Part shown: one piece after another, positions 16,034 to 23,694 of the stretch
How the letters are laid out: every line of letters starts with the position of its first letter
Position numbering within the stretch: the stretch's first letter is position 1
Translations under genes and position numbers: made by a program
Notes under the pieces: model-generated
Seen by the model: only the letters and a program-made list of their open reading frames with translations
What the model was told of the DNA's origin: nothing
The model's database searches: none
Origin: a virus
Strand: one strand, 5' to 3'
DNA: 64,000 nt
IMG/VR virus record: IMGVR_UViG_3300031951_000017
Span: 99,929 to 163,928 of that record

Positions 16034-18046
16034 ATGATAGAGTCAATGGACAATGACAAAAACAAGAATCAGGGGAAATCTGATTCATCAACAACTCCCG
16101 CTTTAGATAATTTTAGTAGGGACTTAATTAAATTGGCCGAACAGGGTAAATTGGACCCCGTTGTTGGTCGAGAAAAAGAAATTTTGAGAATTGCTCAAAT
16201 TCTTTCTCGTAGAAAGAAAAACAATCCAATCATTATTGGTGAACCTGGTTGTGGTAAAACCGCTCTAGTTGAGGGATTGGCTATGAAAATTCACCAAGGT
16301 GAGTGTCCTAGAAATTTAATGGACAAACGAATTTTATCTTTGGACATGACATCAATTGTTGCGGGAACAAAATATCGTGGACAATTTGAAGAAAGGATGA
16401 AAGTAGTTATTGAAGAACTTCAGGCCAACCCTGATATTATTGTGTTCATTGATGAGATTCATACAATAGTGGGTGCTGGAAACACAACAGGTTCTTTAGA
16501 TGCTTCAAATATCTTTAAACCAGCTTTAGCCCGTGGTGAGATTCAGTGTATTGGTGCCACGACTCTTGATGAGTATAGAAAGAACTTTGAAAAGGATGGT
16601 GCATTAGAAAGACGTTTTCAAAAGGTAGTCGTTGACCCATCTTCAGCTGAAGAAACTTTACAGATTCTTAAAAACATTAAAGACAAATACGAAACATTTC
16701 ATAAGGTAATTTTTACTGAAGAAATTCTTAATATTTGTGTCCGTTTGGCTGAGAGATATATCACCGACAGAGAATTTCCTGATAAGGCAATTGACATTTT
16801 GGACGAGGTTGGTGCTCGTAGTCAAGTTGAGATAAAGACTCCGGCAGTGATTGAGGACTTGAAAGCCGAGGCTGATGGAATCAAACAAGAAAAAATTCAA
16901 GTGGTTAAAAGTCAAAAATACGAGGAGGCCGCGGAACTAAGAGATAAGGAGAGAAAAGTTCTTTTAAAATTGGATAACGAGAAAAAGAAATTTGAACAAT
17001 CCCTTTTGAAAAAGAAAAAAACAATCCCAATTGAACTAGTCTATGAAGTAGTTTCAAACATGACGAAAATTCCATTGTCTAAACTTTCTTTAGATGATTC
17101 AAAATCATTAATCAATCTTGAAGAAACTTTATCGGGTAAAGTTATTGGTCAGGAAGATGCCGTTAAACGAATTTCAAAAGCTATACGTAGAAATCGTTTG
17201 GGGATTAAAGACCCAAATAAACCAATCGGGTCGTTTATTTTCTTGGGGTCAACAGGTGTTGGTAAAACATATTTGGCAAAACAATTGGCTAGGGAGATAT
17301 TTGGAAGTGATGAAAACTTAATCCGAGTTGATATGTCGGAATACCAGGAAAAACACTCAATATCTAAATTAATTGGGGCACCTCCTGGATATGTTGGATA
17401 TGACCAAGGTGGACAACTTACCGAACAAATTAAAAATAAACCTTATTGTGTTATTTTGTTCGATGAAATTGAGAAAGCCAACAAAGATGTATTCTCATCT
17501 TTACTTCAGGTTTTAGATGACGGACACATGACAGATGGTTTAGGTAGAAAAATTAATTTCAAGAATTGTTTGATTATTATGACATCAAACCTAGGAATTA
17601 AAAAATTACAAGATTTCGGGTCTAGTGTTGGTTTTAGTACTTCACAAAGTTCTTATAGTGCTGAGGAAAATAGAAAGAACATGCTTCAAAAAGAACTTAA
17701 AAATTTCTTTAGTCCAGAATTCCTAAACAGAATAGACGACGTAGTGATTTTCAACTCACTCAAAGAAGAACACATTGAGAGTATTGCTAAAATAGAGTTG
17801 GACAAACTAACTAAGAGATTGATGGAGATGAAATTTGATGTTAAATTTGATGAGAGTGTTGTAAAATATGTATCTAAGAATGGGTATGATGAACTTTATG
17901 GTGCACGTCCTTTAAAAAGAGCCATACAAGATAAATTAGAAGATTATATCTCTGATGAAGTTCTAAAGGGTAACATCGTTGAGAATGGTCATTACACTCT
18001 ATCAATCAAAGATGATGAAATCCAATTAATGGGTATTGTAATGTGA
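16034..18046 (+). CDS. clpC: ClpC-like AAA+ unfoldase
   Basis: Hexameric ATP-driven protein unfoldase that normally feeds ClpP. In 670 residues: D1 Walker A GEPGCGKT (69-76) and Walker B VFIDEIHT; a UVR-like coiled stretch [12 protein letters not shown] near 300; D2 Walker A GSTGVGKT near 404-411, Walker [24 protein letters not shown] pore loop, and SVGFS near 530, where ClpC/ClpA carry the ClpP-binding loop. The usual N-terminal repeat domain is missing, so it starts straight with D1. No ClpP is in the window, so it may dock on host ClpP. It stands alone on the plus strand, ended by a strong terminator. Another ATG (codon 5) is possible. Confidence 0.93.
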
Positions 18047-19521: not shown

Positions 19522-20346
19522 TTACCAATACCTAAAAGATGGACTCTTTTGTGGACTGAGTTCGTATTTTTTAAGACCTAAATCTTGAATCATTTTTTTA
19601 CCCATATCAATACCATTAAACACATCCTCAATCACAACATATTCATTTCTTGTGTGATATTGATAATAACCGATTGATATGTTGATACAAGAAAAGTCAA
19701 ACAAACTTTTAAGGGCATATACATCAGTATAGGGGTGAACCATATATTTTTTCTTGTCGTTCATTCCCTCTGTCAAAATTTTATCACAGGTACTGAAAAA
19801 TTCACCTTCCCTATCAAATAACTTAGCACCAAAACAAGTTTCAGTAATCATCCAGTTTTCAGGACCGTCGAATTGAATCGCATAACCAACATCAGAAAAG
19901 AAAGACTTGTCAGCATACCTTGAGCCATGACATCCAGTTTCCTCAGAAACAAAAAATGCGGCTTTAATGGTTTCCATCTCTTCCAAAAGTTCCATACAGG
20001 CAAATACTCCACATTTATCATCTCCACCAATACCTGTTGGTTCTCCGTGGTCATTATACGCCTTCAAAGACAATTTCAATTCTCTATGAGAATTTGGCAA
20101 CATTTCCTCAACAACATTAATTGAGTCTATTGGGTGGACAGTATCGGTGTGACATACAACACATGGGTATTTTTCATTATCATTAAGAATACCTTTTGTT
20201 GCATAGATATTAAAATGTTCATCAACCACAAAGTCAATGTTTTTTTCTTTAAGCCAATCACATATGTATTGTACCATTTTTTCCTCACGATAAGTGTGAG
20301 TCGGTACAGCTAATACCGATTTTAATAACGTTAAATCTCGATTCAT
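19522..20346 (-). CDS. M20-family metallopeptidase (PepT-like)
   Basis: Di-zinc aminopeptidase-type enzyme. Visible metal and catalytic blocks: VVCHTDTVHP (His66, Asp68), GIGGDDKCG (Asp109), FFVSEETGCHG (Glu135/136) and the late His in YHTRNEYV. Length 274, shorter than bacterial PepT, with the lid domain apparently reduced. I chose the ATG at 20346; the in-frame TTG at 20367 overlaps the promoter element. The promoter is host type (20365-20372), so early expression is likely. It may recycle peptides for the phage; a lone M20 enzyme is unusual in phage genomes. Confidence 0.88.
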   Translation of the reverse strand: MNRDLTLLKSVLAVPTHTYREEKMVQYICDWLKEKNIDFVVDEHFNIYATKGILNDNEKYPCVVCHTDTVHPIDSINVVEEMLPNSHRELKLSLKAYNDHGEPTGIGGDDKCGVFACMELLEEMETIKAAFFVSEETGCHGSRYADKSFFSDVGYAIQFDGPENWMITETCFGAKLFDREGEFFSTCDKILTEGMNDKKKYMVHPYTDVYALKSLFDFSCINISIGYYQYHTRNEYVVIEDVFNGIDMGKKMIQDLGLKKYELSPQKSPSFRYW

Positions 20347-20364: not shown

Positions 20365-20395
20365 CAAATATATGAATAATCCTTAATCAAACAAC
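20365..20395 (-). promoter_or_regulatory. Host-type (Bacteroidota sigma-A) promoter
   Basis: Gene-sense TATATTTG (20372-20365) with TTG 20 bases upstream (20395-20393). Confidence 0.6.
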
Positions 20396-21444
20396 TCTGG
20401 GTGAAATAAAAATGTTAAAAAATCATCATAACCCATTTTAAATTCTTCAATTGTTTCAAAAGATGCTTGTGAATATTCTACAATAATTTTTCCTGCAAAA
20501 ATATTAAGAATCTTAAATTTAGAGTTTGTATTTTGTTTTTGTTTGGGAAATGAATACCAAGTATTATATTTATAGTCATACTTATGCATAAGTTCCTGGA
20601 GTTCATTATTTTTTTCTAGAACACCTGAATCCATATCTTCCTCTATCGCATCAATTATTTTGTCTAATTGATTTTCAACACTTCGATTAAATCCCTCTTT
20701 ATCAAAATTTTCCCAACTGAAATAATCAAAATAGTCATCATATAAATCTTCATCCAAAACTAAGTCTTCCATTTTCATTATATTATTCATCATTTCTAAA
20801 AAATCATCATCAAATCTTTCGTATTTTTCATAAAGTTTCAAAATGTTTTTAACATTTGTAACATACTTTAACTGGCATTTCACCTCAACAAATTTAAATT
20901 TTGTAAGGACTCCACAAAATTTTTGACTAAGATAATCTTTAAGTCCTGCAACTAAGGCAATATCATATTCATCGGCGTAGTCACCAACAATGTAATCCAC
21001 TTCTTTTTCAAATTTATCATACAAGAATGAAGCAATATCACTTTTAATATTCCAAAAATCTTCATTTTGTATCTCTGAAAATAATTTTATATTTGTTAAT
21101 CTAACAATTTCTTTTACTTTATTAATATTCTCATTATCGAATGAATCAAATATATATCCTTCCTTAAAGTCTTCTTCCGCCCAATATTTGTCGACAAACA
21201 TATGACCATATCCGTAACTATTACCAAAAACATTATTTATGTAGAACGTATTATTTGTGTAGTCATTACGGTTATCGAACATTGATAAAAATTCGGGTCT
21301 ACTAAAAAATACATTAACTACGGTTCTTTCTCGTTCTTCTTTTCTTAGTACAGGTATTTTTAGTACGTCATCATCAGACTCCCTAGTTGGGTCATAATCA
21401 ATTTCACCATTTACGTAAGATTTCAATGCGGTATATAAATTCAT
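20383..21444 (-). CDS. Uncharacterised acidic protein
   Basis: 353 residues, strongly acidic and aromatic (YDDYFDYFSWENFDKE, KYERFDDDFLEMMNN). No catalytic motif recognised. A host-type TATATTTG element at 21455-21462 precedes the start by about 10 bases, without a clear upstream TTG. It ends 16 bases before the peptidase promoter region. Possibly an early host-takeover protein or DNA mimic given its acidity, but that is speculation. Confidence 0.55.
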   Translation of the reverse strand: MNLYTALKSYVNGEIDYDPTRESDDDVLKIPVLRKEERERTVVNVFFSRPEFLSMFDNRNDYTNNTFYINNVFGNSYGYGHMFVDKYWAEEDFKEGYIFDSFDNENINKVKEIVRLTNIKLFSEIQNEDFWNIKSDIASFLYDKFEKEVDYIVGDYADEYDIALVAGLKDYLSQKFCGVLTKFKFVEVKCQLKYVTNVKNILKLYEKYERFDDDFLEMMNNIMKMEDLVLDEDLYDDYFDYFSWENFDKEGFNRSVENQLDKIIDAIEEDMDSGVLEKNNELQELMHKYDYKYNTWYSFPKQKQNTNSKFKILNIFAGKIIVEYSQASFETIEEFKMGYDDFLTFLFHPELFD

Positions 21445-21480: not shown

Positions 21481-21512
21481 TTTGTTTTAATGAAAAGATA
21501 TTTATATCTTTG
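21481..21512 (+). promoter_or_regulatory. Host-type promoter of the tmRNA gene
   Basis: TTTG at 21481-21484, 20-base spacer, TATCTTTG at 21505-21512; the mature tmRNA 5' end follows 21 bases later, leaving a short leader for processing. Confidence 0.7.
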
Positions 21513-21533
21513 TATCGTAGTTCTTTGATTTAT

Positions 21534-21927
21534 GGGGATGTTTTTGGCTTTGACAGGTATGATACGCCATAAAACGCACGTCGGAGCTGAATTAACTCCG
21601 TTAAACTGATTCAAATTGTAAACGGCAACGTTATCAACAAACTTTCAGTAGCTGGTTTAATCCGCACTGAAGAAGTAGCAGTAGCTTAATCTAGGATTAA
21701 CCTACAAAACGGGTCGGTAAGCATATAACCTTGGAACAGAAGCTCGTATTGTGGTGTGGTTTCTACCCAAAAAGAAACAAGTGGAGGATTAGTTCTCAGT
21801 AAACCGAACCACTATAAAATAAGGGAATTGTGAAGTTTTGGATTATTTAGAAAAATAATGACCTAAACGTGTAGTGTTTTATGTCTTACTTATTTGGACC
21901 CGGGTTCGACCCCCGGCATCTCCACCA
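21534..21927 (+). ncRNA. ssrA: tmRNA (transfer-messenger RNA)
   Basis: Rescues stalled ribosomes and tags the unfinished protein. The ends pair as an alanine-type acceptor: GGGGATG at 21534-21540 with CATCTCC at 21917-21923, including the G3-U70 wobble pair, then discriminator A and encoded CCA. The T arm has GGTTCGACC. The 5' domain reads GGCTTTGACAGG, typical of tmRNA. The probable resume codon is GTA at 21618, giving V-NGNVINKLSVAGLIRTEEVAVA and stop TAA at 21687, a long tag with a hydrophobic end like known degradation tags. Resume codon placement is by analogy with E. coli. No frame in this stretch looks like a normal gene. Confidence 0.95.
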
Positions 21928-21929
21928 TT

Positions 21930-21957
21930 AAATAAAGGGACTTTGGTCCCTTTATTT
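21930..21957 (+). terminator. tmRNA terminator
   Basis: 12-bp stem AAATAAAGGGAC-TTTG-GTCCCTTTATTT followed by T residues. Confidence 0.85.
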
Positions 21958-21971
21958 TTTTATGTATTTTT

Positions 21972-21983
21972 TATATTTATATC
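21972..21983 (+). promoter_or_regulatory. Late-type promoter motif
   Basis: TATATTTATATC, 2 bases before the ATG of the first DnaJ-zinc-finger-like gene. Confidence 0.45.
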
Positions 21984-21985
21984 AT

Positions 21986-22834
21986 ATGAATAAAGATTTT
22001 GTTTTAAATGTTGTAAATAAAGTTGATAGATTTTGGGAATCATCAGATGGTGTTTTAAGTTTCACAACTAAATTAGTTAAGGATAAAAAATTCGCTGGGA
22101 TTTTTGAGAAGTTCAAGGGTAGTAGTCTATTTGTAATTTCTTTTCTAGTTCAGGCAAAGAAAAACAATCAAGATTTAGATAAAATTTTTGATGAACTTGA
22201 GAATAGTCTTTTTGTTTATAATACAATTACGGTAGAAGATACTGAACCAACTATAGAGTGTGATGCTTGTGATGGTGATGGTACATTTGAATGTCCTGAA
22301 TGTAATGGTAGTGGTAGGGAAGAATGCTGGGAGTGTGGTGGTAGTGGTGAAAAAGAGTGTGGGGATTGTGAGGGTACTGGTGAGGATTCAGATGGGGAAG
22401 AGTGTACAAGATGTTATGGTAGCGGAATGGAAACATGTAATGAGTGTCTTGGTGATGGTGAAACTAGGTGTGAACGATGTTCGGGTAAGGGTGACAAAGA
22501 ATGTTACAAATGTGAAGGTGAAGGTGAGGTCACTACTAAAGACCAATTCAAGGTTATACAAAGACAATACATTAGTTATGATGGTGAGTATTTAAATTAT
22601 CTTGAAAATTTAAAAAAAGAGGAAGAAATAGAATATTCCCCAACAACTGATAGAGCCTCATTACTAAGAGAAGATATTGGGTATATTGATTCTAGTTTAT
22701 ATGATTTTGAACAGGGTGTGGAATATTTTATGGACATATTCCTAAATGAAGATGGTAATGTCGGTGTTACCATATTAAATTCACACAATAAATTTATGTT
22801 CGATAGTTACGAACTAGATAATTATTTAGATTAA
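21986..22834 (+). CDS. DnaJ zinc-finger-like protein A
   Basis: 282 residues. The N-terminal helical domain (about 1-75) and C-terminal acidic domain are not recognised; the centre (about 80-185) has about eight CxxCxGxG-type pairs (CDACDGDG, CPECNGSG, CWECGGSG, CGDCEGTG and so on), twice the number in classical DnaJ. No J-domain HPD and no DnaJ C-terminal substrate domains, so only the zinc-binding part is shared with DnaJ. Start taken at 21986 because the late-type motif ends just before it. Paralogue follows 6 bases downstream. Confidence 0.75.
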   Translation: MNKDFVLNVVNKVDRFWESSDGVLSFTTKLVKDKKFAGIFEKFKGSSLFVISFLVQAKKNNQDLDKIFDELENSLFVYNTITVEDTEPTIECDACDGDGTFECPECNGSGREECWECGGSGEKECGDCEGTGEDSDGEECTRCYGSGMETCNECLGDGETRCERCSGKGDKECYKCEGEGEVTTKDQFKVIQRQYISYDGEYLNYLENLKKEEEIEYSPTTDRASLLREDIGYIDSSLYDFEQGVEYFMDIFLNEDGNVGVTILNSHNKFMFDSYELDNYLD

Positions 22835-22839
22835 AATAT

Positions 22840-23694
22840 ATGAATCCATTAATAAAACTTGCTTTAGTTAAAAGACTACAGAAATTGTGGAGACCAGGGG
22901 ATACTACCATTGGTTTTTTTAAAGATTTACGTGCTAACAAAAAAATCAAACATTTTTTTGAAAATTATGATTTAACTGATTTAATTGAAATTTGTATGTT
23001 AGTTAACGTCGCCAATCATGGTTTAGACCTTAATAAAGAATATGATTTAATGAAAAAAAATCTTTTTACATTTTCATTAATTAGGGTGGAGGAGTTGAGT
23101 CCTGAAGTTGATTGTGGGGTATGTGATGGGTCAGGGGAGATTAGGTGTGATTATTGTTATAACGGAAGTGTTGATTGTGCTCATTGTGATGGTGGTGATA
23201 TAGATTGTAGACGTTGTGATGGTAGTGGTGAAGGTCCAGATGAGGAGGATTGTACACATTGTGATGGTAGTGGTTATGAACAATGTGAATATTGTGATGG
23301 TGATGGAAAAATAGATTGTGATGAATGTGGTGGTACTGGTGATATAGGATGTGATGAGTGTGAAGCGTCAGGGTATGTTAATAGGGAAGATAGAATGCAG
23401 ATTTCACAACTTGAATATATAAGTTATGATGTTAAACTGAAAGATATATTAGAAAGAAAAAACGAATTTGACGTTATGAGTGATGAAATTATGGAATACA
23501 TATCAAATTCTAAAAGTACTAGTATATTGAGTGACTTTGGTGGAATTAACGATGAATCAAAAATAGTTTTAGATGATGCTGATTTTGAAGAGGGTGTTGT
23601 GTATTTTGGTGAGTTAAATTTACATCACATTTATATTAGAAATTTTTCTAGAAGTGTAGTGACTGATGGTAATTTAGAACAATATTACGATTAA
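22840..23694 (+). CDS. DnaJ zinc-finger-like protein B
   Basis: 284 residues, same architecture as the preceding gene: N-terminal domain (WRPGDTTIGFFKDL matches FWESSDGVLSFTTKL in position), eight Cys-pair motifs (CGVCDGSG, CHCDGGD variants, CDECGGTG), then the shared SQLEYISYD segment (compare RQYISYD). Several Gly positions of the CxxCxGxG pattern have drifted, so it is a diverged tandem duplicate. It probably binds several zinc ions and may hold unfolded protein or RNA. Confidence 0.72.
   Translation: MNPLIKLALVKRLQKLWRPGDTTIGFFKDLRANKKIKHFFENYDLTDLIEICMLVNVANHGLDLNKEYDLMKKNLFTFSLIRVEELSPEVDCGVCDGSGEIRCDYCYNGSVDCAHCDGGDIDCRRCDGSGEGPDEEDCTHCDGSGYEQCEYCDGDGKIDCDECGGTGDIGCDECEASGYVNREDRMQISQLEYISYDVKLKDILERKNEFDVMSDEIMEYISNSKSTSILSDFGGINDESKIVLDDADFEEGVVYFGELNLHHIYIRNFSRSVVTDGNLEQYYD

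What the first reader, a model, noticed from the sequence alone, without database searches (positions are those of the whole stretch)
21534..21927. Phage-encoded tmRNA with a long, unusual tag
Complete tmRNA with G3-U70, T arm and encoded CCA under a host-type promoter. The tag frame from GTA at 21618 gives about 22 residues ending EEVAVA, longer than the usual 8-15 residues though with a hydrophobic end. Phage tmRNAs are rare. It could replace the host tmRNA when host mRNAs are degraded, or tag proteins for a different protease.
Basis: partly seen in the sequence, partly recalled or inferred. Interest (0 to 1): 0.72.

Follow-up and report, generated by a model that had tools for sequence, protein, structure and literature searches.

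The report
Phage tmRNA with conserved long tag
A lineage of large viruses of Bacteroidota bacteria carries its own ribosome-rescue RNA, which appends a conserved 21-residue tag (the bacterial one is 9) and always sits beside viral genes for an unfolding machine and a peptidase, suggesting a private protein tag-and-recycle pathway that the standard gene finder mostly overlooks.

Summary
The tmRNA is real: RF00023 matches window 21534-21927 end to end at 127 bits (cut-off 47). Two corrections. The resume codon is GGC at 21624, not GTA at 21618, because the position 4 nt upstream is A in 45/45 distinct contexts and host Bacteroidota tmRNAs resume at the same GGC. The tag is therefore GNVINKLSVAGLIRTEEVAVA, 21 residues.

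It is also not an isolated oddity. Some 300 IMG/VR stretches carry a homologous tmRNA. Every parsed tag is 21 or 22 residues, selected as peptide (pN/pS 0.49; 0.79 and 1.03 in wrong frames) and unlike the host's 9-residue GENNYALAA. Where enough flank is present, a ClpC-like unfoldase without N-domain but with the ClpP-docking loop lies upstream (104/104), and a PepT-like peptidase lies between (29/29 long loci). Eight of 25 related records also encode ClpP, two encode SmpB.

Best reading: a functional viral tmRNA with its own degron, feeding phage Clp, (host or phage) ClpP and a peptidase. RNA and tag are well supported; recognition by the phage Clp is inferred. Phage tmRNAs are known, and the lineage looks like the 2025 'moraphages', whose description never mentions tmRNA. 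ARAGORN misses the window copy and most relatives.

The parts
21534..21927 (+). tmRNA (ssrA), standard one-piece form, encoded CCA
   Evidence: RF00023 127.4 bits, full model; nhmmer profile of relatives; G3-U70 and compensatory acceptor and T-stem changes
21481..21512 (+). Bacteroidota-type promoter: TTTG (21481-21484), 20 bp, TATCTTTG (21505-21512)
   Evidence: sequence; TAnnTTT[GA] within 60 nt upstream in 62/66 relatives against 0.125 expected
21520..21528 (+). boxA-like leader element GTTCTTTGA, as in Bacteroidota host tmRNA leaders
   Evidence: 51/66 relatives against 0.007 expected; also before host tmRNAs L169, L171
21582..21613 (+). pseudoknot 1: CGGAG/CUCCG (21582-21586/21596-21600) and UGAAU/AUUCA (21588-21592/21609-21613)
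   Evidence: covariation on both stems across 46 sequences
21620..21620 (+). conserved A at -4 of the resume codon (E. coli A86 equivalent)
   Evidence: A in 45/45 distinct contexts and 228/228; role of A86 from PMC2481249
21624..21689 (+). tag reading frame GGC...TAA: GNVINKLSVAGLIRTEEVAVA (21 aa) plus stop
   Evidence: pN/pS 0.49 in frame against 0.79 and 1.03 out of frame
21931..21961 (+). intrinsic-terminator-like hairpin AAAGGGAC/GTCCCTTT with T run after the tmRNA
   Evidence: read directly from the sequence
16034..18046 (+). ClpC-like AAA+ unfoldase, 670 aa, both ATPase domains, UVR motif, ClpP-docking loop VGF, no N-domain
   Evidence: Pfam AAA_2/ClpB_D2-small/UVR; best PDB match ClpC aligned from its residue 148; [VIM]GF in all 66 loops parsed
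19522..20346 (-). M20/PepT-like metallopeptidase, 274 aa, intact metal and catalytic residues, no lid domain
   Evidence: invariant H-T-D, D, E-E, D, H in 78 homologues; AF2 pLDDT 92.8; best PDB match PepT 3gb0, prob 1.00
20383..21444 (-). fast-evolving gene of unknown function, divergent from and adjacent to the tmRNA
   Evidence: 21/29 relatives detectable at 26% identity; no Pfam, PHROG or NCBIfam hit

Best explanation
This is a working viral tmRNA. In the infected cell it is transcribed by host RNA polymerase from a Bacteroidota-type promoter, charged with alanine by host AlaRS through G3-U70, and loaded by SmpB (host-encoded here, phage-encoded in some relatives) onto ribosomes stalled on broken mRNA. 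Translation switches to the GGC resume codon and adds a phage-specific 21-residue degron in place of the host's 9-residue GENNYALAA. The degron is probably read by the phage's own ClpC-like unfoldase. That unfoldase docks through its VGF loop on ClpP (host, or phage-encoded in some relatives), and the neighbouring PepT-like peptidase trims the products to amino acids. The net effect would be rescue of ribosomes and recycling of truncated proteins during infection, independent of host ClpX/ClpA specificity. Well supported by sequence: the tmRNA, the resume codon, selection on the tag peptide, the gene cluster. Inferred: charging, SmpB use, recognition of the tag by the phage Clp, docking on ClpP, the recycling role.
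For: tmRNA. Resume codon and tag. Host tags of 9 aa starting at the same GGC. Promoter and leader. Unfoldase upstream on the same strand in 104/104 contigs that were found by tag DNA alone. Unfoldase, peptidase and tmRNA all in 29/29 long loci. ClpP-docking loop kept. Peptidase active-site residues intact and PepT fold. ClpP in 8/25 and SmpB in 2/25 related records, one SmpB 0.5 kb from its tmRNA with an intact C-tail.
Against: The unfoldase-tmRNA linkage is not independent evidence, because they lie at the edge of a conserved late-gene block (terL in 28/29). No test shows that the tag binds this Clp. The window's own 164-kb record has no ClpP or SmpB (it may be incomplete), so host partners must be assumed. 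The tag ends in -VA/-AA, which host proteases might also accept.
Confidence: 0.55

Rival explanations
1. The phage tmRNA simply supplements or replaces host tmRNA late in infection. The tag is degraded by host ClpXP or other proteases, and the neighbouring unfoldase and peptidase serve other purposes such as capsid assembly, host takeover or virion maturation.
For: The unfoldase, peptidase and tmRNA sit in a conserved late block, so adjacency may be plain synteny. Host-type promoter, leader and resume codon. Most records lack SmpB and ClpP. Tag ends -VA/-AA are hydrophobic like host tags.
Against: A backup would not need a 21-residue tag conserved along its length with nearly fixed residues (K6, G11, L12, A21) and divergent from the host tag.
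Confidence: 0.3
2. The tag is a non-degradative or stabilising tag: the phage rescues ribosomes but keeps or sequesters truncated proteins, or the tag directs them to a phage partner.
For: No LAA end; long amphipathic-looking tag; tag selected as peptide.
Against: Degradation genes are adjacent and universal, and relatives add ClpP. Nearly all tags end in a small hydrophobic residue.
Confidence: 0.1
3. Decoy: the phage tmRNA titrates SmpB or blocks host trans-translation, as proposed for the tRNA-domain-only tmRNA of mycobacteriophage DS6A (PMC4131195).
For: Precedent.
Against: The reading frame, resume signal, PK1 and stop codon are all maintained, which a decoy would not need.
Confidence: 0.03
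4. Captured host gene fragment or integration-site remnant without function.
For: tmRNA genes are common integration sites (noted in PMC11915505).
Against: Conserved across hundreds of divergent contigs with compensatory changes and coding selection.
Confidence: 0.01

Closest known systems
Bacteroidota host tmRNA (RF00023, tags GENNYALAA, GENNFALAA and similar)
   Same: One-piece form, GGC resume codon with the same upstream context, boxA-like leader in some, Bacteroidota promoter
   Different: Tag of 9 residues ending ALAA or AMAA; phage tag of 21-22 residues ending mostly V-x-x-A
Previously reported phage tmRNAs (Bacillus phage G, mycobacteriophages Bxz1/Cali/Wildcat, Melnitz and pelagimyophages; PMC4131195, PMC9004378, PMC11915505)
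   Same: tmRNA encoded by a phage; one-piece or two-piece
   Different: Reported as scattered cases (2.3% of phages by ARAGORN, 79 unique sequences). Phage G's tag is 13 aa. No fixed Clp/peptidase neighbourhood is described in the passages read; this family is mostly invisible to ARAGORN
Moraphages (PMC12619734)
   Same: T4-like large freshwater phages of Bacteroidota; core VOGs include 'ATP-dependent Clp protease ATP-binding subunit ClpA' and 'putative peptidase'
   Different: The paper never mentions tmRNA, SmpB or trans-translation. Identity of our contigs with moraphages is inferred from gene content, not tested by tree
Huge phages with tmRNA and SmpB (PMC7162821)
   Same: Phage-encoded tmRNA and SmpB listed among translation genes
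   Different: Found by ARAGORN; no tag or Clp linkage described in the passages read; the two huge phages with the closest Clp have no tmRNA above cut-off
ClpC (e.g. 6em8)
   Same: Two AAA+ domains, UVR motif, ClpP loop
   Different: No N-terminal domain
PepT / M20 peptidases (3gb0)
   Same: Fold and metal ligands
   Different: Shorter: 274 against about 370-410 aa; dimerisation/lid domain apparently missing

Membership tests
tmRNA | Match to the family covariance model over its full length | tested here: met
   127.4 bits, 1-374/374
tmRNA | tRNA-like domain with G3-U70, discriminator A, T arm | tested here: met
   window and 46/46 aligned sequences for G3-U70 and A; pairs 4-7 change compensatorily
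tmRNA | Pseudoknot 1 upstream of the resume codon | tested here: met
   both stems covary; score 0.448 for the whole tested structure against 0.182 shuffled and 0.11-0.18 slid
tmRNA | Resume codon set by an A four nt upstream | tested here: met
   A in 45/45 and 228/228
tmRNA | Tag frame ended by a stop codon, hydrophobic C-terminus | tested here: met
   VAVA-stop; all parsed tags 21-22 aa. Length is outside the common 10 aa (PMC11915505)
tmRNA | Helix 2 and pseudoknots 2-4 | tested here: inconclusive
   the Rfam alignment is weak in the 3' half of the mRNA-like domain; not analysed separately
tmRNA | Expression, alanylation, SmpB binding, tagging | not testable with these tools
   needs infected cells or purified components
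ClpC unfoldase | Two AAA+ domains and ClpP-docking [LIV]GF loop | tested here: met
ClpC unfoldase | N-terminal adaptor domain | tested here: not met
   alignment to ClpC starts at its residue 148; so 'ClpC-like', not a full ClpC
M20/PepT peptidase | Metal and catalytic residues HxD, D, EE, D, H and fold | tested here: met
M20/PepT peptidase | Lid/dimerisation domain | tested here: inconclusive
   274 residues against 373-411 in PepT structures; domain boundaries not mapped
Moraphage lineage | TerL/MCP/PolB phylogenetic placement | not tested
   only gene content and predicted host compared

The most novel reading that the evidence does not exclude
A virus lineage encodes a private trans-translation-to-proteolysis pathway: its own tmRNA with a dedicated 21-residue degron, a dedicated N-domain-less Clp unfoldase that reads that degron, a peptidase that finishes the fragments and, in some members, its own SmpB and ClpP, running in parallel with and insulated from the host system.
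Probability: 0.45. Interest if true: 0.82.

Novelty: new variant of a known kind. Interest (0 to 1): 0.64.

Why it matters
Why phages keep a tmRNA is open. Here the tmRNA is a core gene of a large lineage, with a conserved tag and conserved neighbours from the proteolysis pathway. That makes the question directly testable: does the viral tag address a viral protease? It would be an orthogonal tag-protease pair, a clue to how phages recycle proteins and free ribosomes after mRNA breakdown, and a warning that ARAGORN-based surveys undercount phage tmRNAs.

Tried and rejected
ARAGORN on the window: nothing, while Rfam is unambiguous. blastn of the window tmRNA against INPHARED: no match. tblastn of a tag peptide in INPHARED: no match. 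Resume at GTA 21618 rejected. ClpP or SmpB in the window's own record: none found. tmRNA in the huge phages LR745206 and LR756502, which have the nearest catalogued phage Clp: nothing above cut-off. L014, the only long Clp locus without tmRNA: its contig ends 1.1 kb after the peptidase, about where or before the tmRNA would start, so it is not a clear counter-example. Mycobacteriophage records were not held under the accessions tried, so only phage G was used as a known comparison. A single-sequence pseudoknot search against shuffles was weakly discriminating; the covariation count was used instead.

Full report
OBSERVATION. Rfam places a full-length tmRNA (RF00023, 127.4 bits, cut-off 47, E 2e-49) exactly at 21534-21927 +. 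The window is the last 64 kb of a 163,928-bp IMG/VR virus record with a T4-type portal and terminase, so it is phage DNA. ARAGORN finds no tmRNA there. The acceptor stem is GGGGAUG/CAUCUCC with G3-U70, followed by A and encoded CCA.

THE TAG. Alignment of 57 relatives puts the resume codon at GGC 21624. The position 4 nt upstream is A in 45 of 45 distinct upstream contexts, position -5 is always a pyrimidine, and the two preceding triplets vary at their first and second positions, the opposite of coding sequence. A86 at this place sets the frame in E. coli (PMC2481249). Bacteroidota tmRNAs in genomes fetched here resume at the same GGC after the same kind of context, with 9-residue tags such as GENNYALAA. 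Hence the window tag is GNVINKLSVAGLIRTEEVAVA, 21 residues. The tags are selected as peptide: positional entropies 17.0/13.1/25.7 bits over codon positions 1/2/3, and pN/pS 0.49 in frame against 0.79 and 1.03 in the other frames over 87 distinct tag sequences. ARAGORN reports a tmRNA in only 13 of 54 related loci, some with wrong or cut tags, but where it finds the right frame in full it too starts at this GGC.

THE RNA. Across 46 aligned sequences G3-U70 and the discriminator A never change, while acceptor pairs 4-7 change compensatorily. A count over acceptor, PK1 and T stem gives a covariation score of 0.448 against 0.182 shuffled and 0.11-0.18 when slid. A Bacteroidota -7 element (62/66) and a boxA-like GTTCTTTGA (51/66) precede the RNA, as before some host tmRNAs.

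HOW WIDESPREAD. Starting from the neighbouring Clp protein, 65 of 80 IMG/VR loci have the tmRNA downstream; the rest end too early, including L014 when its displaced peptidase is considered. Starting independently from three short DNA patterns covering only the first codons of the tag, 235 further stretches were found. All 235 are tmRNAs by profile, all 228 parsed tags are 21 (195) or 22 (33) residues, and all 104 with at least 4.5 kb upstream have the Clp gene on the same strand 1.8-5.7 kb upstream. The parsing filter allowed 18-26 residues, so the length is not imposed; the first seven codons are. Some of these stretches come from contigs already in the first set, so the two sets are not fully separate.

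NEIGHBOURS. Window 16034-18046 is a 670-aa ClpC-like unfoldase: both AAA+ domains, UVR motif, VGF loop, but no N-domain. The loop is [VIM]GF in all 66 relatives parsed. Window 19522-20346 is a peptidase with M20 ligands invariant in 78 homologues; its model (pLDDT 92.8) matches PepT best (3gb0, E 5e-13, prob 1.00). In 29 loci of 21 kb or more, Clp, peptidase and tmRNA are all present in 29, while genes beyond the tmRNA vary. terL is nearly as constant (28/29), so the cluster is the edge of a conserved late block and adjacency alone does not prove joint function. The window's record has neither ClpP nor SmpB, but 8 of 25 related records encode ClpP and 2 encode SmpB. One SmpB lies 0.5 kb from its tmRNA with a full C-terminal tail.

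MECHANISM. The parts form a line from stalled ribosome to amino acids: tmRNA (+SmpB), degron, unfoldase (+ClpP), peptidase. I judge a phage-specific degron read by the phage unfoldase most likely (0.55), and a plain backup of host tmRNA with host degradation the main rival (0.30). No step beyond the sequence has been tested.

KNOWN AND NEW. Phage tmRNAs are known: 10 phages in PMC4131195, 402 phages or 2.3% by ARAGORN in PMC9004378, huge phages with tmRNA and SmpB in PMC7162821, 79 unique sequences in PMC11915505, where the commonest tag length is 10. Phage G's tag is 13 aa. The lineage here resembles the moraphages (PMC12619734), whose core list includes a Clp ATPase and a putative peptidase but whose text has no mention of tmRNA or SmpB. 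In the held open-access library no paper was found that links a phage tmRNA with a conserved long tag or with phage Clp genes; subscription papers were not searched. New here, as far as these searches show: the conserved 21-22-residue tag family, its universality in the lineage, its fixed Clp/peptidase neighbourhood, and its near-invisibility to ARAGORN.

Noticed in passing
L043 10641-10865, L073 15098-15325, L056 12871-13087, L081 15112-15328; also L366, L380, L281, L332, L426: Group I introns interrupt the T loop of some of these phage tmRNAs (RF00028 72-98 bits). By the U...G rule they sit at two sites: after loop nt 2 (L043, L073) and after loop nt 1 (L056, L081). T-loop introns are known in bacterial tmRNAs (PMC11915505); I did not find a report for phage tmRNAs.
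   Followed up: partly
L043 11887-12296 -; L281 2509-2918; L380 9693-10107 -; L332 4946-5352 -: GOLLD RNA (315-330 bits) lies 1-2 kb from intron-containing phage tmRNAs (L281 is the same contig as L043).
   Followed up: no
L015 15345-15782 -: Phage-encoded SmpB with an intact C-terminal tail about 0.5 kb from the phage tmRNA.
   Followed up: partly
L047 9675-9765, L053 18845-18935, L055 19786-19876: ARAGORN reports phage tRNAs with a four-base anticodon call (ctta), possibly odd anticodon loops, in related phages.
   Followed up: no
window 20383-21444 -: Fast-evolving gene of unknown function transcribed divergently from the tmRNA, kept in this position in most relatives.
   Followed up: partly
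window 21962-23694 +: Two consecutive genes with weak DnaJ-type zinc-finger (CXXCXGXG) similarity just downstream of the tmRNA; rarely present in relatives.
   Followed up: no
L209 1439-1797 (Chryseobacterium phage MA9V-3); L210 around 1501-1533 (crAssphage cr53_1): T-arm end of a tmRNA lies at the 5' side of the annotated gene, suggesting permuted two-piece tmRNAs in other Bacteroidota phages; not annotated in cr53_1.
   Followed up: no
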